From: a virus
Strand: one strand, 5' to 3'
Virus record (IMG/VR): IMGVR_UViG_3300043446_000624
Coordinates: 1 to 55,844 of that record
DNA: 55,844 nt
Shown here: positions 2,269-50,965 of the stretch, one piece after another
Layout of the letters: each line of letters opens with the position of its first letter
Numbering within the stretch: position 1 is the first letter of the stretch
Notes under the pieces: generated by a model
Databases searched by the model: none
Told to the model about the DNA's origin: nothing
What the model saw: the letters and a program-made list of their open reading frames with translations, nothing else
Translations under genes and position numbers: made by a program

Positions 2269-2642
2269 TTCAGCATCTCCTGAATCAGTAACTTCATCAA
2301 GTCCTCGTCTGTCTGCCACCCTATCGGCTCGCTGTCCGTTGAGCGTAGCCACACCTCGTATGGGCGCTCGGGGTCGCAGTGGAACAACTGCCCACTGATA
2401 GCGGTCACCTCCCGCCCGTTGGGGAACACCCACTTGGCGTAATAGTGGTTGTGCATATCCAAGGATGACTTCTCGTATGCCCCCGCATTCTTAGCCATCC
2501 CATGCAGTCCACTCGTCTCGATGTACTCAGCCAGCGGTAGACGCGGCGTTGACCGATCAGGTGGGATGATGAATGCTTCAGCCATCTTTGCAAAGGCGCT
2601 CTTTTGCGTTGGGTCGTATGTGTACGTTCTGTACGTTCTCAT
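2265..2642 (-). CDS. Hypothetical protein, 125 aa
   Basis: The ATG at 2642 overlaps the stop of the upstream gene (ATGA). The protein begins MRTYRTYTYDPTQKSAFAKM. The centre is rich in aromatic and polar residues (HNHYYAKWVFPNGREVT), followed by WLRSTDSEPIGWQTDEDLMK. The alternation suggests a small beta-sheet core capped by helices. There is no membrane segment and no obvious metal-binding set, although three His/Tyr-rich positions cluster at DMHNHYY. It lies in the translationally coupled minus-strand operon. Function is unknown. Confidence 0.65.
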   Translation of the reverse strand: MRTYRTYTYDPTQKSAFAKMAEAFIIPPDRSTPRLPLAEYIETSGLHGMAKNAGAYEKSSLDMHNHYYAKWVFPNGREVTAISGQLFHCDPERPYEVWLRSTDSEPIGWQTDEDLMKLLIQEMLK

Positions 2643-2998
2643 AGGATGTTGTACCCTTTCAGCCAACGGCGTGTATCTTTGCCGGGGGCAACGATTGTGA
2701 GCCCTGCGTATTCATCGTCCACATCGTTGAACTCGTCCATGCAGAAGTCTGGGTCGCAAGTGTTCAGCGCCAAGTACTCGGCATCGTTCAGGGGGTCGTG
2801 AACGCTTAGCCAGTCGGACACGATGGTGTCTGTGGAAAGACTTGTTTTGTTGTTTGCTTTGGTGGTTGTGTGTTTCTTTGTGACACGCAGAGCCTTCCGT
2901 GTCACACGGGGCAGGGCTTTGTGCCACTCGGTGGCATCATGGGGGATAACAACAACATCCTGCGTCATGGCAGGTGTCCAGACAAATGCAGCTTTCAT
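2639..2998 (-). CDS. Hypothetical protein, first gene of left minus-strand operon
   Basis: The 119-residue protein starts at the ATG at 2998, which has AGGAG with a 6-nt spacer; an in-frame upstream start lacks this signal. It has a basic Lys/Thr-rich middle (ALRVTKKHTTTKANNKT) and a very acidic C-terminal half (DPDFCMDEFNDVDDEYAG), ending in KDTRRWLKGYNIL. The charge segregation suggests interaction with nucleic acid or another protein, but nothing enzymatic is visible. It is the promoter-proximal gene of the operon that runs down to position 1, with an extended -10 promoter about 120 bp upstream. Confidence 0.65.
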   Translation of the reverse strand: MKAAFVWTPAMTQDVVVIPHDATEWHKALPRVTRKALRVTKKHTTTKANNKTSLSTDTIVSDWLSVHDPLNDAEYLALNTCDPDFCMDEFNDVDDEYAGLTIVAPGKDTRRWLKGYNIL

Positions 2999-3114
2999 GA
3001 CCAACTCCTAACTGAATCAAACTGAATGAACTAAATTCACCACCCCGTGAACCACTAAACAGCGGAACGACAGGGCGATGGGCTTGTTGGAGAGTTCTTT
3101 CCCCAACTGTTTGT

Positions 3115-3123
3115 ATTATAACA
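3115..3123 (-). promoter_or_regulatory. Extended -10 promoter for left minus-strand operon
   Basis: Read on the minus strand this is TGTTATAAT, a perfect extended -10 element (TGn plus TATAAT). It lies about 120 bp upstream of the first gene of the left operon. No convincing -35 hexamer sits 17 bp upstream, which is tolerated for extended -10 promoters. The host sigma-70 family holoenzyme is the presumed user. Confidence 0.5.
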
Positions 3124-3268
3124 TTCTTTGACGATTGGTGGTAGGGGTCGGGGGCAACTATTTTGGGGTGGGGGTGGTGACACCTGTGACACCTTTTGTG
3201 CAAACTCTGGGAGGGGGAACAGAGGTGATAGATGGATTTGGGCTTTGCTTAGATGAAGTATTGGGGGC

Positions 3269-3277
3269 TTATCCACA
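3269..3277 (+). promoter_or_regulatory. DnaA box (exact consensus)
   Basis: The sequence is TTATCCACA, identical to the consensus DnaA box. It lies at the left edge of the iteron-containing non-coding region, upstream of the AT-rich tract. Confidence 0.5.
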
Positions 3278-3479
3278 ACTCCGTTGGAACGGGAAAGGGA
3301 CGAAAATGGGGTAAAAACGGGGTATTTGTAAAGTTGGCTTGGAATCTGGAATAAATCTTGGAATCACAAAAAATGGTGCTGTGTAATACTTAGTACTTCA
3401 GGGGGTGGTGAAAAGACATGGAATTTGTAATAGATATATATCTATATTTATTTATAGTAGTAGTAGTAGTATTACTCGA

Positions 3480-3501
3480 TTCCAAAATTCCAAAATTCCA
3501 A
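3480..3501 (+). repeat. Triple 8-bp iteron TTCCAAAA
   Basis: Three TTCCAA hexamers start at 3480, 3488 and 3496, an exact 8-bp period, immediately after the AT-rich TAG-repeat tract. The same period recurs in pairs at 3641/3649, 3820/3828, 3841/3849 and 3870/3878. Confidence 0.8.
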
Positions 3502-3640
3502 CGATTTTGCAGAGGCTTCCGTGAAGAAGATGTTGCTTAAAAAATGAGCATTGTTAAATTTGCGGTGTGCGAAAGATGCACCGCGCGGCAAACCTTGCCG
3601 ACGAGATTAACTTCGTTTGGCCTGACCATCTCGAAAAATC

Positions 3641-3883
3641 TTGGAATTTTGGAATTTTCCTGTGGATAACCCCATAAAAGCCTTATAAATCAAGTACTTA
3701 CGCGGTTCCAATTTGGTTTTGCGTTTTGGAATTAAATTCCAAAATGGGGGTTTCGGTTCCAAAATGGTGGAACTTGGCGCGTTTCGCTAGAACAATGCTC
3801 ACGCGATAATCTACTCCGATTCCAAGATTCCAAAACCTTGTTCCAAAATTCCAATTTAGTCCAGCCAATTTGGAATTTTGGAA
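3641..3883. repeat. Cluster of TTCCAA/TTGGAA repeats, both orientations
   Basis: Hexamers occur at 3641 and 3649 (TTGGAA), 3706 (TTCCAA), 3726 (TTGGAA), 3737 and 3757 (TTCCAA), 3820, 3828, 3841 and 3849 (TTCCAA), and 3870 and 3878 (TTGGAA). Four of the pairs have 8-bp spacing and several face each other to form longer inverted repeats. A dedicated DNA-binding protein is implied; its identity is unknown. Confidence 0.75.
3661..3669 (-). promoter_or_regulatory. DnaA box (exact consensus, inverted)
   Basis: TGTGGATAA on the plus strand is the reverse complement of TTATCCACA. It directly follows a tandem TTGGAATT pair and lies about 200 bp from the AT-rich tract, in opposite orientation to the box at 3269. 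Confidence 0.5.
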
Positions 3884-3969
3884 TTTCACCGACCCCTGAA
3901 TCACTAAATAGCGAGCTTGCGCCCAGAGCACGCGCGAGGACTCATAACTGGTCTCAAACCCCGCTAGGG

Positions 3970-4014
3970 GCAAAAAGAAACCCCGCCCGACATCTTGCGA
4001 CATCGGGCGGGGTT
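3970..4014 (-). terminator. Rho-independent terminator after the 206-aa gene
   Basis: On the minus strand a 12-bp GC-rich stem (arms 3979-3990 and 4003-4014, AACCCCGCCCGA pairing with its complement) encloses a 12-nt loop and is followed by TCTTTTTG. It starts 10 bp beyond the stop codon at 4024. Confidence 0.85.
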
Positions 4015-4023
4015 AGTGATCAC

Positions 4024-4644
4024 TTACTTGATCTTGTCGTAGAAGGCATCAATGGCCACGCGAAGTTTCACTTCGTCAACGGCCTGCTCATCATTGCGGG
4101 AGTGAGCATTTTTGCAACGCTTCTTCATGTCCGCAAAGGTATCATTAAGGTATGACATGAAACCCTTAGCCTGCACACGCTCTCGGGGTTTACCCTCGTT
4201 TTGCACCTTGCGAACTTCGCGGGTAATGTCAGCCATTTTGTTACTGACGAACTTGCTGAACTTGGTGCGGATCGGGCCAATGATGCCATGCAACACCGGT
4301 TGATCGGTCTTGAGTTGACCGAACGCTTGCTGACTGTAGGACATGCAATAGTCCAACGTCACCAAGGTGTTACCCTTTTCATTGGGCACCCATGACAGAC
4401 TGTCATAGGTCACGGCGGGATTGAGTTCTTGCCAACGAAGTGCGAACCCGGTTTTGAGTTCGTCTTTGACGGCGGCGGGAACTTCATCGAGAAACGTGGG
4501 GCATTTCTCGTTGATCCAACGGGCGACCGCGTTCAGCGACTCACCCGCGAGAACCGCCTTGTAGGCGGCATCCTTGTAGGATGAGGGAGTGGCATCGTAT
4601 GCCACGGCCACGGCCTGCGCCGTGGGGGTTTTGGTTTTGCTCAT
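4024..4644 (-). CDS. Hypothetical protein, 206 aa
   Basis: The ATG at 4644 has GGAG with a 5-nt spacer. Sequence upstream in the same frame is Arg-rich non-coding DNA and carries a promoter. The product begins MSKTKTPTAQAVAVAYDATP and is largely helical with no membrane segment. It includes a conserved-looking centre (WVPNEKGNTLVTLDYCMSYS) and a basic C-terminal half (KMADITREVRKVQNEGKPRE, then DMKKRCKNAHSR). The abundance of lysines and arginines would suit a DNA- or RNA-binding role, but I do not recognise the family. It is a single-gene transcription unit with its own promoter and terminator, which suggests high or separately timed expression. Confidence 0.75.
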   Translation of the reverse strand: MSKTKTPTAQAVAVAYDATPSSYKDAAYKAVLAGESLNAVARWINEKCPTFLDEVPAAVKDELKTGFALRWQELNPAVTYDSLSWVPNEKGNTLVTLDYCMSYSQQAFGQLKTDQPVLHGIIGPIRTKFSKFVSNKMADITREVRKVQNEGKPRERVQAKGFMSYLNDTFADMKKRCKNAHSRNDEQAVDEVKLRVAIDAFYDKIK

Positions 4645-4704
4645 AGTATCTCCGATAAGCAAAGGGACGACAACCCGCCGCAACCGAATTGTCACGGCAT
4701 CGTG

Positions 4705-4722
4705 TCGTCTGATTAAGTTATA
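4705..4722 (-). promoter_or_regulatory. Promoter-like 18-mer, copy 1
   Basis: The plus-strand 18-mer TCGTCTGATTAAGTTATA matches the element at 5612-5629 at 16 of 18 positions. On the minus strand it reads TATAAC, then about 6 nt, then ATCAGACGA. TATAAC is a good -10, so transcripts could start in or just before ATCAGACGA. It lies 60-80 bp upstream of the 206-aa gene. No -35 hexamer is conserved between the copies, so a phage-specific or activator-dependent promoter is possible. Confidence 0.5.
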
Positions 4723-4856
4723 CATGATCGGCCATGGAATTGCGCGTTTCACCGGGGCGTGAACCACTATCTCGCTCGCTTGGCCCACTCGCTCACTCGC
4801 GTGGCTGGACTCGCGCCTACGCGCGCGGCGACAAATAACTGGTATCAATGGCCAAA

Positions 4857-4880
4857 TAAAAAGGGGACCGAAGTCCCCTT
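4857..4880 (-). terminator. Terminator with UUCG tetraloop
   Basis: In minus-strand sense the stem AAGGGGAC / GTCCCCTT closes a TTCG loop and is followed by TTTATTT, directly downstream of the stop at 4884. The core is identical to the terminator after the major capsid gene. Confidence 0.8.
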
Positions 4881-4883
4881 TTG

Positions 4884-5054
4884 TCAGTCCAACAGCTCCA
4901 AGAGCTTGTTGTACTCAGTGGTCATTTGCTCATCGCTCCACGTATCGACTATGCTGTAGTCGGGACGCATTCCAAACACGTCTTTATGCAGATCGCTGTA
5001 GCTTGCCCACATTTTTTCCATCGGGCTCATATCTTCCCAAGCTTTGAATTTCAT
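4884..5054 (-). CDS. Small hypothetical protein, 56 aa
   Basis: The ATG at 5054 is preceded by AGGAG with a 6-nt spacer and the frame ends at TCA (4884-4886), just before a terminator. The product begins MKFKAWEDMSPMEKMWASYS and continues to VFGMRPDYSIVDTWSDEQM before an acidic, leucine-rich end. It looks like a small helical protein of a type often seen in phage early regions. I do not know a function. It is transcribed with the 153-aa gene upstream, separated by a stable hairpin. Confidence 0.75.
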   Translation of the reverse strand: MKFKAWEDMSPMEKMWASYSDLHKDVFGMRPDYSIVDTWSDEQMTTEYNKLLELLD

Positions 5055-5069
5055 GGTGTTCTCCTAGAT

Positions 5070-5087
5070 GGGGGGCCAAAGCCCCCC
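5070..5087 (-). other. Intercistronic hairpin
   Basis: GGGGGGC and GCCCCCC arms pair around a 4-nt CAAA loop between the 153-aa and 56-aa genes. No T-tract follows on the minus strand, so this is more likely an RNA-stabilising or processing hairpin, or a weak attenuator, than a full terminator. Confidence 0.6.
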
Positions 5088-5093
5088 GGTTAA

Positions 5094-5555
5094 TCAATCA
5101 CACTGGATCGCGTACTTGGGAGTCGTCACTGTTTCAGTGCCGATCACAATTTTGCGACACGTTGGACTATCGTCCTTCACGTATGCACTCAGCAACACCC
5201 TGTAACCGTCCACGATGTACGTGAAGTCACGGTTCAGGCACGATGCGTATTCTTTTTGCTCATCAAGAGTGCCGATTTCTTCGAGCAACCATAGGACTGA
5301 TTCGAGTCGCAGGGACTTAAACCCGTCCAGATGGTACAGATTGATGCTAAACACGGGCTCGTCACCACTCATCCACATGTGCAGAGAGTTGCTACGCGAG
5401 TTGGTGTCGACACACATAGACAACGTGCGAAGCAAGCGGCCGATGGCTTTGCGCTGAGTGGTAAGGACTGCCACGCTGTTACGGGCGCGCACTACGCGGT
5501 CTTTGGCCTCACGCAAAGCGTTTGCGTAGAGTTGGGTTGCAATGGACTTTGCCAT
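5094..5555 (-). CDS. Hypothetical protein, 153 aa
   Basis: The ATG at 5555 has AGGAG with a 6-nt spacer. The N-terminal 45 residues are basic and helical (SIATQLYANALREAKDRVVR). They are followed by a beta-rich segment with tryptophans and tyrosines (HMWMSGDEPVFSINLYHLDG) and a C-terminal strand-rich region (FTYIVDGYRVLLSAYVKD). No membrane segment or catalytic set is visible and I do not recognise the family. It is the first gene of a two-gene unit and its upstream region carries the second copy of the promoter-like 18-mer. Confidence 0.7.
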   Translation of the reverse strand: MAKSIATQLYANALREAKDRVVRARNSVAVLTTQRKAIGRLLRTLSMCVDTNSRSNSLHMWMSGDEPVFSINLYHLDGFKSLRLESVLWLLEEIGTLDEQKEYASCLNRDFTYIVDGYRVLLSAYVKDDSPTCRKIVIGTETVTTPKYAIQCD

Positions 5556-5611
5556 TTCATTCTCCTAGATAGACGACACTCTGGCTTTGCGACATGCTCT
5601 GCATCATTGCA

Positions 5612-5629
5612 TCGTCTGATAATGTTATA
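5612..5629 (-). promoter_or_regulatory. Promoter-like 18-mer, copy 2
   Basis: TCGTCTGATAATGTTATA on the plus strand, 16/18 identical to 4705-4722. On the minus strand it gives TATAAC followed by ATTATCAGACGA, upstream of the 153-aa gene by about 60 bp. The two copies are the only ones I found and both precede genes of unknown function. Confidence 0.5.
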
Positions 5630-5930
5630 TACCAGCCCTGAGAAAAATTCTCGGTTTGGCGCTGACCCACCCTATCCCCACCCCCCAAGATCTCGCTCGG
5701 GTCCCATCGCGGCTCCATACACTAAGCGGAGCACAAACGACGCCCAACTTCTCTATAACTTAGTACGTATAAAATCATCTTTAACTCTGCACTTCGCTGC
5801 AACCCAATATCCATGCGGGTTCCAGATTAATTCCGCTAGTGCGTGCATGCTCGTTTTGGCGGAAATACCCCCTTGCTTTTTCTAAGTCCCCCCCATCGAA
5901 AAAATTTTTTATAAAAATTTTGGACTTATG

Positions 5931-5939
5931 TGCTATATT
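5931..5939 (+). promoter_or_regulatory. Extended -10 promoter for packaging/head operon
   Basis: TGCTATATT (TGn plus TATATT) lies 33 bp upstream of the small terminase start, after an A/T-rich block. Downstream bases CCGGCCATCT resemble those after the TATATT at 14533-14538 (GCCAGCATCT), suggesting two related late promoters. Confidence 0.5.
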
Positions 5940-5971
5940 CCGGCCATCTTTGGAGTGCACCCCTTTCCTCT

Positions 5972-6529
5972 ATGGATGACTTTATTCCTGAAGTGGACGA
6001 GAACGTCCCACTGCCAGCCTCCGCCCTGGAGGCTATGCCGCCGCTTTCCGCAATGGAAGAGGTCGAGATGCGAGGCAGAACCCTCAAGATGCTTTCAGAC
6101 CTGACCGGCAAGCCGATCGAACCGACACAGTTCCATCGTGGTCAAGCTGTTGAAGTTATTAAACAGGTGGTCGAGAACAAGACTGATCTGAACCTGACCA
6201 CATTCCCGAACGAAACAATGGCCTATCTGGCCGGGATGGTTGCTCAGTACGATCACATGATCGTGCGGGAGTTAGCCGACCTGAAGCTGTACGTCGTCAA
6301 TAAGTTGTTAGCTGAGACAGATAACCCAGACGGAAAGATTCGTCTACCCGCTATCAAGGCGCTGGGCGAAATTGACGGCGTTGATGCGTTCAAGCGCCGC
6401 ACCGAAGTGACACATAAGACGCAACCGATTGAAGAAGTCGAGCGGGAGCTGCTAGAAACACTGCAAAAAGCTAAGAGCCGCGCGATTGACGTAGTAGCTC
6501 GGGAAGTACCCAATGCAACTAACCCTTGA
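5972..6529 (+). CDS. terS: Terminase small subunit (probable)
   Basis: The 185-residue protein sits immediately upstream of, and overlaps by 17 bp, the terminase large subunit, the classic terS position. It begins MDDFIPEVDENVPLPASALE, has a long helical core (VEMRGRTLKMLSDLTG; MAYLAGMVAQYDHMIVRELA) and ends with a charged coiled-coil-like stretch (PIEEVERELLETLQKAKSRA). No canonical HTH stands out at the N-terminus. The role inferred is recognition of the packaging site and regulation of the ATPase/nuclease. The start at 5972 is chosen over the TTG at 5930 because the latter lies within the promoter; the Shine-Dalgarno is weak. Confidence 0.75.
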   Translation: MDDFIPEVDENVPLPASALEAMPPLSAMEEVEMRGRTLKMLSDLTGKPIEPTQFHRGQAVEVIKQVVENKTDLNLTTFPNETMAYLAGMVAQYDHMIVRELADLKLYVVNKLLAETDNPDGKIRLPAIKALGEIDGVDAFKRRTEVTHKTQPIEEVERELLETLQKAKSRAIDVVAREVPNATNP

Positions 6530-31839: not shown

Positions 31840-34800
31840 ATGGGAAAAAGCGTAACAGATTTTACCGGCGGTCTTTACGACGACATTGCAGACACTGCGC
31901 AAGATATACGCAGTGATGTTATCAACACTGTTCAGGACACAGCTGCTAAGGTCTATGATAATGTCGTATCGCCTGTTGCTGCAACTGCGGTAAACACGAT
32001 TAAAGCCGCCGCGAAGGATCCCATCGGTACGATGGTTACTGTCGCAGTAGCATACGCTGCGCCGCAATATTTGCCGCTGGTTAACGCGGGCAGAACTTTA
32101 GCCAACGGCGGGACGCCGCAAGACGCGTTAAAAAACGCAGCAATTTCGTACGCTGCAACAAATATAGGTAATTACGTTGGAGACCAAGTCACTCCGATTG
32201 AATCGCAAACACTTCAGCAACTAGGCCCACAGTACGAAAACCTTGCGCTGGTAAAACAAGTTGTGTCCGCATCTACAGGCGCGGCTGCGGCGTCTATATT
32301 GCGCGGAGAGCCTGTAAAATTAGTTTTGACCAATGCAGTAACTGGAGCCGTTAACAGCGCGGTAAGTAGCCAGCTTGCAAAAGACTATGGTTTAGCGTCA
32401 GGGTCGTTCGCCAACCAATTAGCGTCTAATTCTATTTCTGCAGCTACTAAAGCGTTGCTGCAGGGTAAACCATTGATGGAAGCGGTAGTTCAGACCGCAA
32501 CAGCCACAGCCATCACGGCGGGTATTACTACGGGCGTAGAAAATCTTAAGGCGTTGTCAAATAAGTCTGTTTCTCTTTCGCAGGAATTTAGTGCTAAAAC
32601 AGGCGTATACAATTCAACTTTAGAAACTGCTAAAAGTCAAATTGCTAATGCTGACAGCTGGGTGACAATGGGTGTCAACACAGCAAATATGTACGCAACC
32701 GATAATGGTAAATATATTGAGGAATATAAAACAGACTACGCCAGATATACAGCGTTAATTGATAAAGTAAATTCCGGTGATTATTCCGGACGGGATAGCG
32801 ATATTGCAACTATCCATACCTTAGAGTCTCAGTTAGGTGTAAAAGCTGACCAAATTGAGTATACTAAACAACAATTTAACGATTGGTCACAAAAAGTTAA
32901 CGATTATGTAGTTCGTCGAACTGAAATTGAAAATACATATCTACCACAACTTTCGACTATGCGCAGCGAATTGGATACGCTGGCAAAAGATTATTTAAGC
33001 GCACAGGATAGTATTAAATCGGTTTCTGAGGATATTGGAACCCAGGTCAAACATTACGAAGATTTTGTCAGTACGGAATCCGCCAAATATGCGGATGAAA
33101 TTGCTGCTGAGGCGGTTAAACAAGCCCAAAGTACGCTTGAAACAAACGCCAAGAGCGTGGGGGCTGATAGTTACGCCACACTTAAACCGTATGTTGATAC
33201 AAAAGTACAAGAGATTGAGGATGTTAAACAGCAGCTTCAGGACCACATGGCTGCTGGCGACTATATTAGCGCGTGGGCAGATAAAAACAAACTAAATGAA
33301 CTTGGAACTAACCTTAATAGTATTGAACGTAAGTTTGATGATTTGGGAGTTGATCTTGGTAATGACGCTAAGGCTGCGGACACTCTTAACTATTCGATGG
33401 ATATCCAAAAAGATATCCTGCCCGGGTTGCAACAGCAACAGCTTCATAATCAGGCCGAGCGCATATATGCACCCCTCGTAGAAGTTGACCTAAAGAACGC
33501 CGCAGACGCGCAACAAAAATTTCAGGACGCAATGGCGTCAGGGGATTACCAAGCTGCAAAACAGGCCTTGTCTGTTATACAGCAATCAACAAAAAATCTA
33601 GACGTCTACGAACAGCAGTACCCAACCGCAAAATTAAGTTACGACGACAAACAAGCGCCGTTCCAAGATTTTTTAGACACTATCGACGTCAAGGCAATTG
33701 ACAAAGGGATTGCGGTACAACGGGCGCAGCCTTGGCTTGATCAATTAACGGCCCGAGCGCAAGCCGCGCAGAACCAGCTTGAACAAGCGCTGGAAAATAA
33801 TGACTTCTATGCTGCCGCATCCGCGCGTAGACAGTTAAACTCCTATATAGACCAAATAAAAAATGTAGACACCAATTATGGGCTTGATAAATACAATATA
33901 AGCACGGACGAGCAAGCGGATCCTTTTAAAAATATGTCGGGTAGTTTCACGGACCAACAAATTGGTAACACTGCCGCCGCGTATGACACTCTAAAGAACC
34001 AAGCCCGGAATGAATTAATACGGCAAGGCTACACTGAATACTACGGAAAAACCCTTCAGCCAAACGCCAGCGCTGAAATAGCGTCGGTTGCCGAGAATTA
34101 TGAAAAACAAATTCAAGACGCAATGGCGTCTGGAGATTATGCTGCTGCGCAAAAAGCCGCTGACGCTTTAAAAAAATGGACAGGTAAACTACAAACCTAT
34201 GAGGGAGTTAGCTTCCAGCAAGATAATCAGGCGGAAGAATATCAAAAATTCCTAGATACAATTGCGCCAGATATTGAAAAAGGGGTTTTAGAACAAACAG
34301 CGGAAAAAGCTACGCCGACTACGCCGACTACGCCTACGCCGCCGACTACGCCGACTACGCCTACGACGCCGACTGAACCTGCGCCTACGACGCCGACTAC
34401 GCCAACGCCAACGCCTGAAGCTACGGACGATGGCACAACTGGCGATATTCAAGACATTATTGACGTAATAAACCCACCGACGCCTGCGCCGACTACACCG
34501 ACTACGCCAACGACGCCAACTACGCCGACTACGCCGACTACACCGACTACGCCAACGACGCCAACTACGCCGACTACGCCAACTGAACCTGAGTGGGTCA
34601 AAGAATATCGAGCAACGCTTAATAACATATATAAACCCGTGCTTGACGCACGTGTGAGGGAAGCGGAAACGTCTAAAGCTAGGCTTGAACAAGCTCTTGC
34701 GGCTGGAGATCCCGCTGAGATTGAGCGCTTTAGCAAGAATCTTCAATCAGATATTGATGCGATTAAAAATGTAGACAACATGTATCGCGTCCAAGATTTT

Positions 34801-35811
34801 AATCTTGGGTGGGACGACAGAGCGACTACGTTTGAAGACTTCTTAGAAACTATTAAGTCGCCCACACCTACGCCGACTACACCAACGACGCCGGACGATA
34901 TGACGCCGGACGATACGACGCCAACTACACCGACGACGCCGACTGAACCTGCGCCAGTCGAGCCAGAACCTGTGCCGACTACACCGACTGAACCTGTGCC
35001 AGTCGAGCCAGAACCTGTGCCGACTACACCGACGACGCCGGACGATACGACGCCGGACGATACGACACCGGACGATACATCCACAGACAATGGTGGATTT
35101 ACAGGGCCGACTGGCCCAATGACTGCTGATCAGATTCAGCGGTACAACGACGAGTTCTCCCGTTATCTGGACTCTTTGACGTCTGGAAGCACGATTCCGC
35201 CCGACTACGATGTCCAAGACCTAGGGATTACCCCAGAAAACTGGGAATCGTTTGACCAAAACCTTCAGCAGATGCTGGAGGAAGGAAAGTTGCCGACTCA
35301 GTGGAAGCCTGGAGACAACGGAGCTTTTACGTATACGGACGATGACGGTAGCACGATTACGATCGATGCAGAAGGCAATATTGTGGGTTACACCGAAGCC
35401 CCCATAGGCAATCTGCCTGGAGAAACTCCGCCTGAAGAAACAACTCCTACGCCAACAATCCCGACTACGCCGGTAACTCCTAAGCCGCCGACAACGCCGA
35501 CTACCCCGACTACCCCGACGACGCCGGTAACTCCTAAGCCGCCGACGACACCGACTACCCCGACTACCCCGACGACGCCGACTACCCCCGCTGGGCCGTT
35601 GGATTTACAGTCACTTTTGGCACTTTTGGGCGCGGTGGGCGGCGGAGACCAAAGTCAGGCCCCGGCGCCCCAAGTTGTGGATATTGGTCAGCAACTGGAC
35701 CTTAGCGCCCCCCTGGAAACAAACCCGTTTGCAAGACAGCAAACTCAATCTAAAATGGCAACTGGCGGGTCTATCGACGATCTGCTGGCAATGCTTCAGC
35801 AGAGAGGTTAA
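31840..35811 (+). CDS. Internal virion/ejection protein with Thr-Pro linkers, 1323 aa
   Basis: The N-terminal 230 residues are Ala-rich and amphipathic (AYAAPQYLPLVNAGRTLANG) and suit membrane insertion. Helical coiled coils follow to about 820. Five related helical repeats of the type (M/L)A(S/A)GDYxAAxxAL occur near residues 468, 564, 650, 760 and 952. Four Thr-Pro blocks (TTPTTP) lie near 824-860, 879-915, 1007-1080 and 1199-1250. A globular segment (1085-1195) and an end MATGGSIDDLLAMLQQRG complete it. Position before two more large helical proteins suggests an ejected protein. The Thr-Pro blocks are probably flexible. Confidence 0.72.
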   Translation: MGKSVTDFTGGLYDDIADTAQDIRSDVINTVQDTAAKVYDNVVSPVAATAVNTIKAAAKDPIGTMVTVAVAYAAPQYLPLVNAGRTLANGGTPQDALKNAAISYAATNIGNYVGDQVTPIESQTLQQLGPQYENLALVKQVVSASTGAAAASILRGEPVKLVLTNAVTGAVNSAVSSQLAKDYGLASGSFANQLASNSISAATKALLQGKPLMEAVVQTATATAITAGITTGVENLKALSNKSVSLSQEFSAKTGVYNSTLETAKSQIANADSWVTMGVNTANMYATDNGKYIEEYKTDYARYTALIDKVNSGDYSGRDSDIATIHTLESQLGVKADQIEYTKQQFNDWSQKVNDYVVRRTEIENTYLPQLSTMRSELDTLAKDYLSAQDSIKSVSEDIGTQVKHYEDFVSTESAKYADEIAAEAVKQAQSTLETNAKSVGADSYATLKPYVDTKVQEIEDVKQQLQDHMAAGDYISAWADKNKLNELGTNLNSIERKFDDLGVDLGNDAKAADTLNYSMDIQKDILPGLQQQQLHNQAERIYAPLVEVDLKNAADAQQKFQDAMASGDYQAAKQALSVIQQSTKNLDVYEQQYPTAKLSYDDKQAPFQDFLDTIDVKAIDKGIAVQRAQPWLDQLTARAQAAQNQLEQALENNDFYAAASARRQLNSYIDQIKNVDTNYGLDKYNISTDEQADPFKNMSGSFTDQQIGNTAAAYDTLKNQARNELIRQGYTEYYGKTLQPNASAEIASVAENYEKQIQDAMASGDYAAAQKAADALKKWTGKLQTYEGVSFQQDNQAEEYQKFLDTIAPDIEKGVLEQTAEKATPTTPTTPTPPTTPTTPTTPTEPAPTTPTTPTPTPEATDDGTTGDIQDIIDVINPPTPAPTTPTTPTTPTTPTTPTTPTTPTTPTTPTTPTEPEWVKEYRATLNNIYKPVLDARVREAETSKARLEQALAAGDPAEIERFSKNLQSDIDAIKNVDNMYRVQDFNLGWDDRATTFEDFLETIKSPTPTPTTPTTPDDMTPDDTTPTTPTTPTEPAPVEPEPVPTTPTEPVPVEPEPVPTTPTTPDDTTPDDTTPDDTSTDNGGFTGPTGPMTADQIQRYNDEFSRYLDSLTSGSTIPPDYDVQDLGITPENWESFDQNLQQMLEEGKLPTQWKPGDNGAFTYTDDDGSTITIDAEGNIVGYTEAPIGNLPGETPPEETTPTPTIPTTPVTPKPPTTPTTPTTPTTPVTPKPPTTPTTPTTPTTPTTPAGPLDLQSLLALLGAVGGGDQSQAPAPQVVDIGQQLDLSAPLETNPFARQQTQSKMATGGSIDDLLAMLQQRG
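34312..34590 (+). repeat. Low-complexity ACGCCGACT repeats coding Thr-Pro
   Basis: Runs of acgccgact units encode TTP/TPT repeats in two blocks (about 34312-34419 and 34474-34586). Adenine/cytosine third bases vary, so the repeats have been maintained at protein level. They are prone to length variation or assembly error. Confidence 0.85.
35470..35577 (+). repeat. 54-bp direct repeat, two units
   Basis: A 54-bp unit starting CCGGTAACTCCTAAGCCG occurs at 35470 and again at 35524, nearly identical, coding PVTPKPPTTPTTPTTPTT twice. A recent in-frame duplication within the Thr-Pro-rich C-terminal linker of the 1323-aa protein. Confidence 0.85.
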
Positions 35812-37923: not shown

Positions 37924-39882
37924 ATGCAAACAAATTACGATCGTCAAGCCAAACTAGCGCAGTCAGCTGGTTTGCCCCAGCTTCAGGCGTTGTCCCAAGG
38001 GGCTAATCCTCGTCAAGTACGACCGTTTGTTGCTCTTGGTGAACTCAATGCGCGTATGGCCCAGATGCAGTCCGACAAGATGTTGCAAGGTGCAGCGCCT
38101 CCAGGGTCTATGCCGACTCTGCGGGAGAAAATTGAACAGTCTCTTCAACAGCTAAAAGCGCAAGCGGCACAACAACAAGCTGCGCAACAGGCTCAACAGC
38201 AGGCCCCCGGTATGTTTCAAGTGCCTGAAGGCACTCCTACGCCGCAGATGCAGCCCCAAGCTGAAGAGATGGCGCAGGCTCCCGCCGATGACGCAATGCA
38301 GATGTATTCTGGTGGCGTGGCTCGTTTGCCCGTAGAGGATCGGATGTTTGGTTACGCCAACGGCGGCATTATTTCGTTCTTTGACGGCAAACGTCCTGAA
38401 GACAAAAAAGATTACGAAGGGCCAACTGACGCGGACATTCAAGAGCAACTAGATCGTCTAGACCGGGAAGCCGGGGTTGTAAGGGATGAAAACGGTCGGC
38501 CCGTAAGAAGAGCCGCTCCTGCCCCTGCGCCAAAAGAAGAAGCTACATCTTTAGCTGGTGACGTTGGTCGAACCGTCGGTCAAGGGATCATGTCCGCAGC
38601 GGGAGCAGTTGGCGATTGGTGGTCAGATTTGACCCGTAAAGGCGAGTTGAACCGCGAACGCTTGCAGCAAGTCCCGGGGTTATTTGAAGAACTTACACCG
38701 TCCCAACGTGCGGCACGCATGGCCCGCATGAAAGAGCTTGGTCAGCAGATGGATAGCGTTTCATCGCCGACGCCTACTGCAGCACCTGCACCTGCCCCCG
38801 CTCCAAAACCTGTCGTTGGTGTAAGTCCAGATCAAGCTGCGGCAGCTCGGGCAAGCTTTGCGGCGACTGATCCCCGTCGAGTGGGGATTGCGACTCCTCC
38901 ACCCAGCAAAGTTGTTCCTCCCACGACAAACGCTCCCGTAAATGCTGGCGATGCAGGCGGGGCTGGTGGTGGCGCATCTACAATGGATGATCTAAGAAAG
39001 ACTTTGATTGAAACCCTTAAGCTACCAGGGTACAAGCCTTCTACACCCAAGTCCGTTGAAGAGCTGGATAGAGAAAAGCAAACCTTTGTGGATAAACAGC
39101 CAACCTCTGCGGAAGCTCAGGCGCTGATGAAGCACTACGATGCAATGGCTAAACGCTACGCCGCTAATGACGAAGCAGAAAAAGCCCAGCAAGCACGGAA
39201 CGCTAGTAACAATCTGGCAACGTTTCTAATGAACACGCGTGGCGGCAGTCTTGGAATTGCTGCTGGTAAAGCAAACGCGGCTCTTCAGCCGTTGCTTGCG
39301 GATCAAGAAACCCGACGTCAGACCTTCCAGAAATTGCGCGATGAACAAGAGATGCTTCTTGGCAAGTCTCGTTATGAGCTTGCTCAAGCGGAACGCGCAC
39401 GCAAGGAAGGCCGCTTTGACGACGCCCGCAAGCACCAGCTGGAAGTCCAAAAGGCGGAAACCGAGATTGCCAAGATTGAAGAACAGCGTCGTGGTCACGT
39501 TTTGACTGGTGGTGTTGGTCTGTTGAATGCTGAGGAGCAAAAACGGTATCACAACATTTTGGCTGGGCAAAACGCAGAAACCAAAAGAGAAAATCAGCGC
39601 CGCTTTGACCTTCAGATGGGTCAAAGACAAGACGAACTGGATGAGCGTATCCGTAATAACAAATTAAACAATCAGCGATTGCTGAGAGACCTTAACAAAA
39701 ACATCGACGCCGCAAGAGTGAAGCTGTCTAGGCTGCCCAAGGATTCCAAAGAACTCGCCCCCATGCGAGAAGAACAGGAAGCTCTGATCCGTGGCTGGCA
39801 AGAAGAAAAACAGATGCTGCTTGATGAAATTAATAGGCCAACCGGGTATGATCCATCCAAGGTCCGAAAAGTCGGGAACTAA
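37924..39882 (+). CDS. Internal virion/ejection protein, coiled-coil, 652 aa
   Basis: N-terminus MQTNYDRQAKLAQSAGLPQL with a helical PFVALGELNARMAQMQ segment, then a long Gln/Ala stretch (QLKAQAAQQQAAQQAQQQAP). It contains MYSGGVARLPVEDRMFGYAN followed by GGIISFFDGKRP, the KGG-type motif shared with neighbours. A Pro/Ala linker precedes C-terminal coiled coils (about residues 375-620; LEVQKAETEIAKIEEQRRGH). No catalytic site is seen. Together with the flanking genes it probably forms the trans-envelope ejection channel. Two bases separate its stop and start from neighbouring genes. Confidence 0.72.
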   Translation: MQTNYDRQAKLAQSAGLPQLQALSQGANPRQVRPFVALGELNARMAQMQSDKMLQGAAPPGSMPTLREKIEQSLQQLKAQAAQQQAAQQAQQQAPGMFQVPEGTPTPQMQPQAEEMAQAPADDAMQMYSGGVARLPVEDRMFGYANGGIISFFDGKRPEDKKDYEGPTDADIQEQLDRLDREAGVVRDENGRPVRRAAPAPAPKEEATSLAGDVGRTVGQGIMSAAGAVGDWWSDLTRKGELNRERLQQVPGLFEELTPSQRAARMARMKELGQQMDSVSSPTPTAAPAPAPAPKPVVGVSPDQAAAARASFAATDPRRVGIATPPPSKVVPPTTNAPVNAGDAGGAGGGASTMDDLRKTLIETLKLPGYKPSTPKSVEELDREKQTFVDKQPTSAEAQALMKHYDAMAKRYAANDEAEKAQQARNASNNLATFLMNTRGGSLGIAAGKANAALQPLLADQETRRQTFQKLRDEQEMLLGKSRYELAQAERARKEGRFDDARKHQLEVQKAETEIAKIEEQRRGHVLTGGVGLLNAEEQKRYHNILAGQNAETKRENQRRFDLQMGQRQDELDERIRNNKLNNQRLLRDLNKNIDAARVKLSRLPKDSKELAPMREEQEALIRGWQEEKQMLLDEINRPTGYDPSKVRKVGN

Positions 39883-47526: not shown

Positions 47527-47741
47527 GCCACGCGCCATGCCCGTACACCAAGGACACCGTCCTTGGTAGTGGGGTAGGCTTTCACTTTCACTCCAGCTTT
47601 CTTGGATGTGACGTCAATCATGTAGACCATGTACGCAGGGCGCATAGTCGGGATAAAGAAGCTATCCCCTATGCTCATCCCTGTATACGGAAAAATCCAC
47701 TCTGGCTCGTCAGGCGGCGAGTCGGGTTTCAGCGGTTTCAT
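47523..47741 (-). CDS. Small hypothetical protein, 72 aa
   Basis: The ATG at 47741 lies inside the 3' end of the primase-helicase gene; a TTG two codons upstream is an alternative. It begins MKPLKPDSPPDEPEWIFPYT, then MSIGDSFFIPTMRPAYMVYM and ends with GVLGVRAWRVA. The GDSFF(I/V)P and final RVWR-like pattern with a Pro-rich start matches small proteins often found next to phage replication genes. A compact beta fold is likely. Its stop overlaps the convergent stop of the 2546-aa gene by 4 bp. The Shine-Dalgarno is weak, so coupling is assumed. Confidence 0.65.
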   Translation of the reverse strand: MKPLKPDSPPDEPEWIFPYTGMSIGDSFFIPTMRPAYMVYMIDVTSKKAGVKVKAYPTTKDGVLGVRAWRVA

Positions 47742-50580
47742 CTGCAAAAAGGTGGCTCACGTCGAACTTGATCTCATAGGCTTGGACGTTGGTCGTGCCA
47801 AAAGCATCCTTCCAGCCAGCCGCCATCTGCTTGCGCCCCTTGCTTCTGAGGATGCCGCGCTTCTCTATCGCGTTCTCAAAGTCGCGTAGCCCAATTCGCA
47901 CGTCCTTGAAGTAGGCTTTCAGGGCTGACGTAGACACCCAAATAGTACCCTCATCCACCTCGGCGCGGACGTACAACGCTTGGCGCGGCTCGGTTGTGAC
48001 CTTGCCATCCCGGACCACCAGACAGCTCTGGATGTTCTTGTTGATGAAGTCACCCAGCACTTCCTCATAGCGGTCTTCGTCTGCCACCACGCCCTTGATA
48101 ACGCGGTCCAACTCACGGCCCACGACGTCCATGATGCGCTCAATGTCGAAATGCACCAAATTCAAGGACTTAACCACCTGGTCAGCTACACGAACTGTGG
48201 CAAGCAAGTTAATCAGGAAACGGTACTCGGCGTTGGAGGTATGCTGGAACCCCACTTCCAAGTACATCGCGCCCAGTCTGCGCTTGATTTCAGTCGTCCC
48301 AATGCGAAACAACTCCTTGATGTACATTGGCCCAGCGTGACCGTGGTGAGTCTTCAAGGCGTCGAACATCTGTAGACCGCGCTGTGACGTCAACTCGTAC
48401 CCGGGCACACTGGGTCGTGTAATCCGTGGCTCCAGAATCCGCATCTCTTCTGCGTTGGTATTATCTTTGTAGGTCGCCATCAAGTCGCGCAGACTTGTGT
48501 TGGTTGTGGTCACCGCTATCAGCTTGGTAACGTATGACGCCTCGCGCTCTTGGTTGGTAGAAGACTGCATCCTCAGCTTGGACTGACCGGATGACACGTT
48601 GTAGGCGATATGGGATACCACCTTGCCATCTGTATTGGACTGCTCGTCCAGACCAAACAGGATGTTCTTGGAAGTAATCATCCGTTGCATCAGGGCGTTT
48701 TGCGTTGCCTCAAACACCGCCAAATTTTCTGGGTGACCCCAGATGCTCAACCCACCATACAGCGCCCCGGTCTTACCAAAGCCTGACTTGCCATGCAGGG
48801 ATAGGATGACGCCGTTGACGTTGGTGAATTCGATCAGGGGCGACGCAAATCCGCATAGCATCGTGAAGGCATGCCACTCGTAGCCGGGGTCGTTGAACAT
48901 TTGCGCGGCTTTCTTCCAGCCATCCAATGTGCCGCCTTGTTTAATGTTGCGGATGACGTTCTTAGCCATTGGGGACGGTGGACAGTGCGCCGTAGTCCCG
49001 TTAGCAAAGTACTCGGTTGAGCCTAAAACGAATGACTTGTAGTCTTCTGTCCAGCCTTGTTGAACTCTCATGATGTCTGCCTTCTGTGTTTCTACTAAAT
49101 ATGCCGCCCACTTCATCAGATAGCTGGACAGCTTCGGTGCAAATCCCAATTCAAACGTCACGCCGTTGGTTGCCAGTACAGTCTTCAGGCGCTCCAAGGA
49201 TGCAACATCTTTCAGGGGAAGCAGGAACTCTCGTGTGGCGTCGAGCGGCAGGTAAAGCACCATCACCAAGCATTCGCCATCGTGAGGGCTATACACGCGC
49301 TGAGTCGGATACACGTCGTTCGGTGTGATCATTTCAGGCGGGTCTTGGATGATCGTGCCTTTTTTGTCTCGTCTGGGAGGAGGTGTGTAGTAGATACCTC
49401 CATTAATGCCTCGACTGTAGGGCTGGAGGTAGTCTGGGAAGACGACAAGTTTTTTGGTATCCGTGTCGGCCCGAACTGATTGCGCTTCATCTTTGGTTTC
49501 GGCGCTTCCAGTAGGCTCTTCAACGGGTTCGGGAGCGGGGACGGATGCAACTCGGAGAGACTTTCCAAGCTCGATAGGCCCAGTGATTTTGCCTCGGAAG
49601 GGACAGCCACTGCATCGTGCGGCATCTTCTTTGGCGAAAGCGTCACATCCGTGCGCCCAGTTTGCTTCGCTGAGTGACTGTTGGGCTTTTCGTTCAGTGG
49701 CATCTCTGTCGTATTCGGGGTGTCCCTCTGACATGAGATGTATGGACTCAGCGCCATCAGAACACCTAACGGCGACAGATATTCCAGCGTACCACAGCGG
49801 CTCTGGACAACTAGCGGGGTTCTCGATGATGAATTTAATTTGTGCACAGCCGTTTCCCTCCAGGCTTGAGACTGCGATGTTGTGGAAGATGTACTCAAAG
49901 TTACCCCTACGTTTTTCTAGGATAGCCTTCGTGTCGTCATCCAGCCCCTTCTCGACCTTGCTGATGTCGAACGGCAGTTCAACAGGCCCGAAGCAAGCGA
50001 TAAGATCATCGAAGCTATGCGCTTCTCCGTCCCTAATAATTTGCACAGGCAACGGGTTGGCTGGGTCTTTGACGTTGTTGCTTCCCGGCACGCGCAGTAC
50101 TCGGGCGGCATCTGCTGTTACTGACTCGTCAATCCGCAGACCTGAATCAAGGCACAGCTTCTTGAATGCTTCGGCGTAAGGCTTCCAACGATCAGTCTCA
50201 ACGTCTTCCGTGAAGGGCCAGTACGCATGGATGCCGTGGCCCGAGTTGACGATGATGGGGTCTGGAAGTTCTTTCTCAGCTACGAAGTTCAGGAGCGATG
50301 TGAGACCTTCGTCCCAATGCTCGTACGGTTTCTTGGGGCCACAATCAATGTCAACAAAGAACGAACGCATGAAGATACAAGCGTCGGCCTTGCGAGACAT
50401 CCCTTCAAAGGTGCCCAGTGCAAAGTACGCGTTCCAGTCCCCCTGAACGAAACCTTGCATCTGTTGGATTGCATCATCAATGTCGTCGGCAAACTTCGGG
50501 CGCACAGTCCCGTCCTTGATGCCCACCACACAAATGTTGCCCTGCGTCGGTAATACTTTCTGGAAAAATTGTTTGTTCAT
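47710..50580 (-). CDS. Primase-helicase (AEP-type primase plus DUF927 ATPase)
   Basis: The 956-residue protein initiates DNA synthesis and unwinds the fork. The N-terminal archaeo-eukaryotic-type primase domain has D77 and D79 in FFVDIDCG, SGHGIHAYW with H118, and the third acidic region DAARVLRVPGSNNVKD. A Cys-containing linker (CSGCPF near 340) follows. The C-terminal half is a DUF927-type ATPase: LMKWAAYL, a GWTEDYKSFVLGSTEYFANG segment, and Walker A LHGKSGFGKTGA near 595-606, then FGLDEQSN. Start at 50580 chosen by fit to family ends; the longer ATG at 50652 would include a hairpin. Confidence 0.85.
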   Translation of the reverse strand: MNKQFFQKVLPTQGNICVVGIKDGTVRPKFADDIDDAIQQMQGFVQGDWNAYFALGTFEGMSRKADACIFMRSFFVDIDCGPKKPYEHWDEGLTSLLNFVAEKELPDPIIVNSGHGIHAYWPFTEDVETDRWKPYAEAFKKLCLDSGLRIDESVTADAARVLRVPGSNNVKDPANPLPVQIIRDGEAHSFDDLIACFGPVELPFDISKVEKGLDDDTKAILEKRRGNFEYIFHNIAVSSLEGNGCAQIKFIIENPASCPEPLWYAGISVAVRCSDGAESIHLMSEGHPEYDRDATERKAQQSLSEANWAHGCDAFAKEDAARCSGCPFRGKITGPIELGKSLRVASVPAPEPVEEPTGSAETKDEAQSVRADTDTKKLVVFPDYLQPYSRGINGGIYYTPPPRRDKKGTIIQDPPEMITPNDVYPTQRVYSPHDGECLVMVLYLPLDATREFLLPLKDVASLERLKTVLATNGVTFELGFAPKLSSYLMKWAAYLVETQKADIMRVQQGWTEDYKSFVLGSTEYFANGTTAHCPPSPMAKNVIRNIKQGGTLDGWKKAAQMFNDPGYEWHAFTMLCGFASPLIEFTNVNGVILSLHGKSGFGKTGALYGGLSIWGHPENLAVFEATQNALMQRMITSKNILFGLDEQSNTDGKVVSHIAYNVSSGQSKLRMQSSTNQEREASYVTKLIAVTTTNTSLRDLMATYKDNTNAEEMRILEPRITRPSVPGYELTSQRGLQMFDALKTHHGHAGPMYIKELFRIGTTEIKRRLGAMYLEVGFQHTSNAEYRFLINLLATVRVADQVVKSLNLVHFDIERIMDVVGRELDRVIKGVVADEDRYEEVLGDFINKNIQSCLVVRDGKVTTEPRQALYVRAEVDEGTIWVSTSALKAYFKDVRIGLRDFENAIEKRGILRSKGRKQMAAGWKDAFGTTNVQAYEIKFDVSHLFADETAETRLAA

Positions 50581-50598
50581 GATCGCAGAGACAATAAT

Positions 50599-50619
50599 GG
50601 CGGGAGCAACGCCCCCGCC
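50599..50619 (-). other. Hairpin before primase-helicase gene
   Basis: A 9-position stem (one mismatch) with arms 50599-50607 and 50611-50619 and a 3-nt loop sits between the HTH gene stop and the primase-helicase start. No T-tract follows, so a translational or attenuation effect is more likely than termination. Confidence 0.6.
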
Positions 50620-50629
50620 AACCACAAAA

Positions 50630-50965
50630 TTAGTCTGGCTTGGTGCCAGCACGCTTCATTGGGCGACCAACCATCTCCTCGCAATAGGTGCGGGCGGCGC
50701 TCAATGAAGTTGCAGGAAGTACCCCGGCCTTCAGGTCTTTCTCCATCAGGTCGATCAGTACTTCTATCATGTGTTTTTTACCGTCACGTATAACGCCGCC
50801 TCTGAACCAAGCGTGAATTGTTGGCCTAGTTGTATCAAGCATCTGCGCCACGTATGTCGCAGGGATGTTGCCCTTGATGCAGACCTTGCCAAGTTCACGC
50901 CCTAGGTTGTAGGGGCCACGGTAATCGACTGCCTCTTGCAAGGCGGCGCTATACGTTCGTGCCAT
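50630..50965 (-). CDS. HTH DNA-binding protein, 111 aa
   Basis: The start overlaps the upstream stop by one base (TAATG). The N-terminal half is helical (MARTYSAALQEAVDYRGPYN). A helix-turn-helix is seen at about residues 34-65 (IPATYVAQMLDTTRPTIHAW then FRGGVIRDGKK). The C-terminus is helical (LIDLMEKDLKAGVLPA) with AARTYCEEMVGRPM. I recall this family as conserved in phage replication operons. It probably regulates this operon or marks the origin; the TTCCAA arrays at 3480-3883 are a possible target, untested. Confidence 0.75.
   Translation of the reverse strand: MARTYSAALQEAVDYRGPYNLGRELGKVCIKGNIPATYVAQMLDTTRPTIHAWFRGGVIRDGKKHMIEVLIDLMEKDLKAGVLPATSLSAARTYCEEMVGRPMKRAGTKPD

What the first reader, a model, noticed from the sequence alone, without database searches (positions are those of the whole stretch)
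3231..3890. Candidate replication origin: DnaA boxes, AT-rich tract and TTCCAA iterons
Two exact DnaA boxes in opposite orientations (3269-3277, 3661-3669) flank an AT-rich tract (3431-3473) and precede or interleave with 17 TTCCAA/TTGGAA hexamers. The region is non-coding and lies upstream of small early genes. Two exact 9-mers within 400 bp are unlikely by chance (roughly 1 in several thousand), although one more exists inside a gene at 39087.
Basis: partly seen in the sequence, partly recalled or inferred. Interest (0 to 1): 0.6.

Follow-up and report, generated by a model that had tools for sequence, protein, structure and literature searches.

The report
Iteron-type replication origin of uncultivated phages
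A 600-base stretch of non-coding phage DNA packed with 19 copies of a 7-base word, next to the most AT-rich spot of the contig, is very probably where this phage family starts copying its genome; the same single array sits in the same place in dozens of related viruses known only from metagenomes.

Summary
The window (a 55,844-bp IMG/VR phage contig) has 18 exact TTCCAA/TTGGAA hexamers, better described as 19 RTTCCAR heptamers, in 3284-3884 (0.65 expected, maximum 4 in 2,000 shuffles), two exact DnaA boxes (0.007 expected), and the contig's most AT-rich 60 bp. The array is a conserved feature of a whole phage family: about 44-50 IMG/VR contigs carry it between the same two genes. Each near-complete genome has one array and no tandem pair elsewhere. 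DnaA boxes are not fixed in position but are strongly enriched at the array. Best reading: the family's replication origin, an iteron array plus DNA-unwinding element. The likeliest initiator is not the small HTH protein but the phage's 980-aa primase-helicase. It has AEP primase motifs and a DUF927 helicase domain related to the SaPIBov1 replication initiator (PDB 8tch). Its modelled C-terminal domain resembles winged-helix DNA-binding domains; SaPI Rep proteins use that domain to bind origin iterons. Origin activity and protein binding are inferred, not shown. A packaging site or operator array is the main rival. This is a new member of a known kind (iteron origin).

The parts
3284..3884 (.). 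Iteron array: 19 RTTCCAR heptamers in both orientations at 3284(-),3339(-),3346(-),3358(-),3479(+),3487(+),3495(+),3641(-),3649(-),3705(+),3726(-),3736(+),3756(+),3819(+),3827(+),3840(+),3848(+),3870(-),3878(-); dominant tandem spacing 8 bp
   Evidence: conserved in relatives
3479..3501 (+). Triple tandem ATTCCAAA-ATTCCAAA-ATTCCAA (8-bp period) abutting the AT-rich tract; the most conserved signature of the array
3641..3655 (-). Inverted tandem partner, facing the triple repeat across a 139-bp central segment
3502..3640 (.). Central segment between the inward-facing tandem iterons (89-204 bp in the relatives where it was delimited); conserved element CAGCNNGTGC-like; no conserved RNA structure
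3421..3478 (.). AT-rich tract, candidate DNA-unwinding element; lowest-GC 60-mers of the whole contig
   Evidence: same in four relatives
3457..3471 (+). (GTA)5 / (TAC)5 trinucleotide run, only (TAC)3+ run in the window, between iterons and AT-rich tract; DnaA-trio-like (3'-GAT-5' repeats running away from the iterons)
   Evidence: trio definition in PMC10797057
3269..3277 (+). Exact DnaA box TTATCCACA
3661..3669 (-). Exact DnaA box TTATCCACA
3885..3900 (+). 16-bp imperfect palindrome TTCACCGACCCCTGAA at the p206 side of the array (other copies 3036-3051, 3397-3412)
3979..4014 (-). Strong intrinsic terminator separating p206 transcription from the array
   Evidence: 16-pair stem
4024..4644 (-). 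p206: conserved helical protein of unknown function always next to the array; no database match; possible accessory binder
2639..2998 (-). p121: small early gene on the other side of the array, conserved in the family
47710..50652 (-). Primase-helicase (AEP motifs, DUF927 helicase, C-terminal winged-helix-like domain): proposed initiator that binds the iterons
50630..50965 (-).
   Evidence: no family match

Best explanation
The region is the replication origin of this phage family. The phage primase-helicase binds the RTTCCAR iterons through its C-terminal winged-helix-like domain. It assembles on the inward-facing tandem arrays that bracket the central segment, melts the adjacent AT-rich tract, loads as the replicative helicase, and primes for the phage's own family-A DNA polymerase (found in the related genome G003). 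Host DnaA probably helps in members that carry DnaA boxes. Shown here: array, motif, conservation, single copy per genome, AT-rich tract, DnaA-box enrichment, homology of the helicase domain to SaPIBov1 Rep, and resemblance of a low-confidence C-terminal model to known DNA-binding domains. Inferred: origin function, the identity of the binder, melting, and the role of DnaA.
For: Array far beyond chance. 44 IMG/VR contigs hold the triple tandem core; the contigs inspected have the same synteny terL-terS-like-p206-array-p121, with p206 as low as 25% identical to the window's while the motif is unchanged. The motif is sharp: 241 ATTCCAA, 72 GTTCCAA, 60 ATTCCAG, other single-base variants 0-7. In 12 of 13 long records all tandem RTTCCARNRTTCCAR lie in one array of roughly 500 bp, none elsewhere, reversed control 0. 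DnaA boxes: 11 exact in 23 representative regions against a mean of 0.4 for permuted words; 7 of 11 exact boxes in 13 records (~745 kb) lie in or beside the array. The most AT-rich 60-mer of the genome lies in the array region in the window and four relatives. Primase-helicase: DUF927 E 1.7e-28; profile matches SaPIBov1 Rep, PDB 8tch, E 7.8e-11; AEP and Walker A motifs in 19 of 19 homologues; C-terminal model aligns with DNA-bound TcpK (5vfx, Z 9.2, rmsd 3.2 over 88 residues), Cch (5dgk, Z 8.0) and 8tch (Z 8.0). [quoted passage not shown]
Against: No functional data. The C-terminal model has low mean confidence (pLDDT 58; about 77 in the part that resembles a winged helix), the Foldseek E-value is weak (0.012), and the Z 8 alignments to 5dgk and 8tch have rmsd of 15 A or more, so only part superposes. 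The array is not next to the primase-helicase gene, as it is in SaPIs. Distant relatives with other replication modules also have short-repeat arrays near terS, which a packaging site would also explain. GC skew is confounded by gene orientation. DnaA boxes are absent from most array members.
Confidence: 0.72

Rival explanations
1. Packaging initiation (pac-like) site: the heptamers are recognised by the terminase small subunit and mark where packaging starts.
For: The array lies about 2 kb from the gene in the terS position (5930-6529) next to terL. Distant cultured relatives have short-repeat arrays with other motifs in non-coding DNA close to terS: HTVC023P TAGGAAA x6 just upstream of terS, 023Pt_psg01 TGGCACA x7, MinM2 GTATGAC x10.
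Against: It does not predict enrichment of DnaA boxes or coincidence with the genome's most AT-rich tract. In the window family p206 separates the array from the terS-like gene. About 19 heptamers in both orientations suits an iteron origin better (general knowledge).
Confidence: 0.12
2. Operator array: binding sites for a phage regulator (HTH protein 50630-50965, or p206) that controls the early genes reading leftwards from p121.
For: Non-coding, upstream of early genes; a conserved HTH-like protein exists; a separate 16-bp palindrome, repeated through the early region, borders the array, so regulation probably takes place here too.
Against: About 19 sites over 600 bp on both sides of an AT-rich tract with DnaA boxes is excessive for one operator; heptamer tandems are confined to one array per genome while the early genes are spread over many kb. 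Only one weak sigma-70-like site was found in 2900-5950, fewer than in shuffles.
Confidence: 0.1
3. Centromere-like partition or segregation site of a phage-plasmid.
For: Iteron arrays also serve partition systems (general knowledge).
Against: No ParA/ParB family match among the proteins scanned in the window and in relative G003; the scans covered early and replication genes, not every gene.
Confidence: 0.03
4. Origin as in the best explanation, but the iteron binder is another protein: p206 or the 111-aa HTH protein. (Sub-case of the origin reading; its confidence overlaps with that of the best explanation.)
For: p206 is always adjacent to the array: in 19 records the five with p206 are the five with the array. 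The HTH protein sits in the replication operon.
Against: p206 co-occurrence only reflects synteny, since in the long array-less record the segment is missing at the contig ends; its confident helical model matches no DNA-binding fold. The primase-helicase has a direct functional precedent.
Confidence: 0.25

Closest known systems
SaPI / SCC (Cch, Cch2) origins of Staphylococcus: short iterons bound by the C-terminal domain of a self-loading Rep helicase
   Same: DUF927-type helicase homologous by sequence (8tch, E 7.8e-11) with a C-terminal domain that, in a low-confidence model, resembles the DNA-binding domain of Cch and SaPIBov1 Rep; multiple short iterons; SaPI Rep recognises its iterons with the C-terminal domain (PMC7581432).
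   Different: Here the helicase is fused to an AEP primase domain, the array is kilobases from the initiator gene rather than directly downstream, it has about 19 heptamers, and it sits in full-size tailed-phage genomes with DnaA boxes.
Phage P4 origin (alpha primase-helicase with short type I iterons)
   Same: Primase-helicase fusion protein with short iterons in both orientations (P4 anatomy recalled from general knowledge, not tested here).
   Different: Different motif and helicase family; no counterpart of P4 crr was identified.
Lambda origin (O-protein iterons)
   Same: Iterons beside an AT-rich tract.
   Different: Lambda iterons are four and lie inside gene O (general knowledge; four iterons also in PMC10797057); O recruits host DnaB, while here the phage encodes its own helicase.
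Bacterial oriC basal unwinding elements (DnaA box plus DnaA-trio)
   Same: Order iteron - trinucleotide TAC run - AT-rich DNA, with 3'-GAT-5' triplets running outward (definition in PMC10797057); DnaA boxes nearby in some members.
   Different: The iterons are not DnaA boxes; the triplet run varies (TAC, TTC, AAC, ATCT) across the family; no binding shown.

Membership tests
Iteron-type replication origin | Array of short specific repeats, many copies, one locus per replicon | tested here: met
Iteron-type replication origin | Adjacent AT-rich DNA-unwinding element | tested here: met
   AT-rich tract present and the extreme of each genome tested; unwinding itself not tested
Iteron-type replication origin | Replicon-encoded initiator that binds the repeats | not testable with these tools
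   Candidate present (primase-helicase with winged-helix-like C-terminus); binding not shown
Iteron-type replication origin | Replication starts there | not testable with these tools
   Needs marker-frequency data; skew only suggestive
SaPI-type Rep/ori module | DUF927 self-loading helicase related to SaPI Rep | tested here: met
   (homology; self-loading activity not tested)
SaPI-type Rep/ori module | C-terminal DNA-binding domain of Rep/Cch type | tested here: inconclusive
   Low-confidence model; best Foldseek hit Cch 5dgk E 0.012; VIA Z 8.0 but rmsd 15 A or more
SaPI-type Rep/ori module | Origin directly downstream of the rep gene | tested here: not met
   Array lies in p206-p121; in relative G003 the array is at about 10.2-10.7 kb and the primase-helicase starts at about 29.0 kb
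DnaA-dependent origin (oriC-like) | Conserved cluster of DnaA boxes | tested here: not met
   Enriched but in a minority of members, one or two boxes at shifting places
Terminase pac site | TerS binding and packaging start | not testable with these tools
   Only proximity to a terS-like gene

The most novel reading that the evidence does not exclude
A hybrid origin: phage-specific iterons for a SaPI-like primase-helicase placed in front of a DnaA-trio-like triplet run and, in several lineages, host DnaA boxes. A phage initiator, or host DnaA recruited by it, would then use the bacterial basal unwinding logic (boxes, triplets, AT-rich DNA) with a non-DnaA double-stranded anchor.
Probability: 0.12. 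Interest if true: 0.65.

Novelty: new member of a known kind. Interest (0 to 1): 0.48.

Why it matters
It gives a family of uncultivated tailed phages, sampled in many metagenomes, a precise, testable origin and a proposed initiator. It extends iteron origins with DUF927 initiators from staphylococcal islands to 53-71 kb phage genomes, and supplies a sharp motif (RTTCCAR, triple tandem at 8-bp spacing) that finds members of the family by a DNA pattern alone.

Tried and rejected
RNA or ssDNA structure in the central segment: RNAalifold gave no pairs on 15 sequences, z-scores mostly within 1.5 of zero and none below -2.2; Rfam and tRNA scans of the window empty. p206 as a known initiator or TerS: no Pfam, PHROG, phage, plasmid or bacterial-genome match; confident helical model without a Foldseek hit, VIA Z at most 5.0. 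Coupling of array presence to p206 as proof that p206 binds it: uninformative, because the array-less 59.7-kb record lacks that segment at its ends. GC skew as decisive evidence: rejected as confounded. DNA-level match to cultured phages: none. DnaA-trio in the distant relative Rollin: its (AAT)n run has the opposite polarity (by inspection). An ORF at 3698-4003 as a gene: its matches reflect DNA conservation.

Full report
What was checked. The window is a virus contig of 55,844 bp (IMG/VR). Both DnaA boxes and the hexamers are present as described, with 18 exact hexamers instead of 17. Counting all 23 representative arrays shows the true unit to be RTTCCAR: the flanking purine at position -1 and the purine at the last position are almost obligatory, and other single-base variants are nearly absent. 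In the window 19 copies fall in 3284-3884; shuffles of the region give a mean of 0.65 and a maximum of 4, and no other 660-bp stretch of the window exceeds 4. Two exact DnaA boxes in the region were never seen in 5,000 shuffles.

It is a family feature. A search with the neighbouring 206-aa protein (p206) found 48 related viral contigs. In nearly all that extend far enough, 11-18 exact hexamers cluster within 700 bp just 3' of the p206 gene (sequences). A second, independent scan with a DNA pattern (YTGGAATHYTGGAATWYTGGAATW) found 44 contigs. Most were already known from the p206 search, and the new ones that were examined have a diverged p206 and/or p121 beside the array. The order is terL, terS-like, (p153), p206, array, p121, early genes. 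p206 homologues range down to 25% identity to the window's, yet the motif and the layout persist: two sets of iterons, tandem at 8-bp spacing, facing inwards across a central segment of roughly 90-200 bp, the inner triple repeat abutting AT-rich DNA. In 12 of 13 long records every tandem pair lies in a single array and the reversed-pattern control finds none; the thirteenth lacks that genome segment at its contig ends.

Origin hallmarks. The lowest-GC 60-mer of the genome falls in the array region in the window and in four relatives of 63-65 kb. Exact DnaA boxes are enriched: 11 in 23 representative regions against a mean of 0.4 for permuted words, and 7 of the 11 in 13 records lie in or beside the array. 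They are not fixed in position or number, and most members have none, so they are an accessory at best. Cumulative GC skew turns within 2-4 kb of the array in all five genomes tested, but early and late transcription diverge at the same place, so this only fails to contradict. A strong terminator insulates p206 from the array.

The likely initiator. The replication operon encodes a PD-(D/E)XK nuclease, an SNF2 helicase, an HTH-like protein and a 980-aa primase-helicase; relative G003 also has a family-A DNA polymerase there, in a segment that lies beyond the ends of the window contig. The primase-helicase has AEP motifs and a Walker A motif in all 19 homologues examined, a DUF927 domain, and a profile match to the SaPIBov1 replication initiator, PDB 8tch (E 7.8e-11). 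A model of its C-terminal 206 residues is of low mean confidence (58), but the segment around residues 130-170 of the fragment reaches about 77 and has winged-helix-like order of elements. It aligns with the oriT-bound TcpK domain (5vfx, Z 9.2, rmsd 3.2, 88 residues). Cch (5dgk) and 8tch also score Z 8.0, but with rmsd of 15 A or more over about 150 residues, so only part superposes. Foldseek's best hit is Cch at E 0.012. In SaPIs the C-terminal domain of Rep recognises the iterons of the origin (PMC7581432). By this precedent the primase-helicase is the most probable RTTCCAR binder. p206 and the HTH protein remain possible; p206 has a confident helical model with no known relative found.

Rivals. 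Distant relatives by TerL (42-53% identity) carry short-repeat arrays with other motifs in non-coding DNA near terS. That recurring position keeps a packaging-site reading open. It does not explain the DnaA-box enrichment or the AT-rich tract. A pure operator array explains neither the number of sites nor their confinement. Pseudomonas phage Rollin, which has a distant (26%) primase-helicase, has its own repeat-rich non-coding region with a triple tandem (TTGCATACT) next to AT-rich DNA, consistent with the origin reading but not analysed further.

The trinucleotide run. Between the triple iterons and the AT-rich DNA most members have a TAC (or TTC) run; in the window it is the only (TAC)3+ run. 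Its polarity matches the DnaA-trio of bacterial origins (3'-GAT-5' triplets leading away from the boxes; definition in PMC10797057). Some members have other triplets or a tetranucleotide, so this is a lead only.

Verdict. Ordinary in kind (iteron origin), new in occurrence. Confidence 0.72 that it is the origin, about 0.5 that the primase-helicase is the iteron binder.

Noticed in passing
443, 1758, 2269, 2787, 3036, 3397, 3885, 4748: A 16-bp imperfect palindrome, TTCACC-NN-CCCSTGAA (up to 2 mismatches), occurs eight times, all in the early region (0.4-4.8 kb), often followed by NCACTAA; relatives have it at both ends of the array. Probably an operator or early-promoter element.
   Followed up: partly
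3905-3960 and 4745-4850: Two intergenic stretches share a GC-rich gcg/cgc segment and an AACTGGT element beside the palindrome; similar segments lie beside the array in relatives, as if each early gene had the same leader cassette.
   Followed up: no
L159 10130-10490; L157 7526-7760; L158 6385-6480: Cultured phages MinM2, 023Pt_psg01 and HTVC023P have short-repeat arrays with different motifs (GTATGAC, TGGCACA, TAGGAAA) in non-coding DNA near terS.
   Followed up: partly
L162 1-620: Pseudomonas phage Rollin: AAAAGGTAGYAA inverted repeats, a TTGCATACT triple tandem and an (AAT)n run in non-coding DNA; looks like an unannotated origin.
   Followed up: partly
4024-4644: p206 has no detectable relative outside this phage family in Pfam, PHROGs, phage, plasmid or bacterial genome collections, yet is highly conserved next to the array.
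   Followed up: partly
34310-35000: A dense repeat of CGACTACGCC-like words inside the 1,323-aa late gene (31840-35811), up to 14 copies of a 7-mer in 700 bp.
   Followed up: no
L118-L119 (relative G003): Early region carries an ATPase gene and a DUF2201 metallopeptidase/VWA gene side by side, as in MoxR-VWA modules.
   Followed up: no
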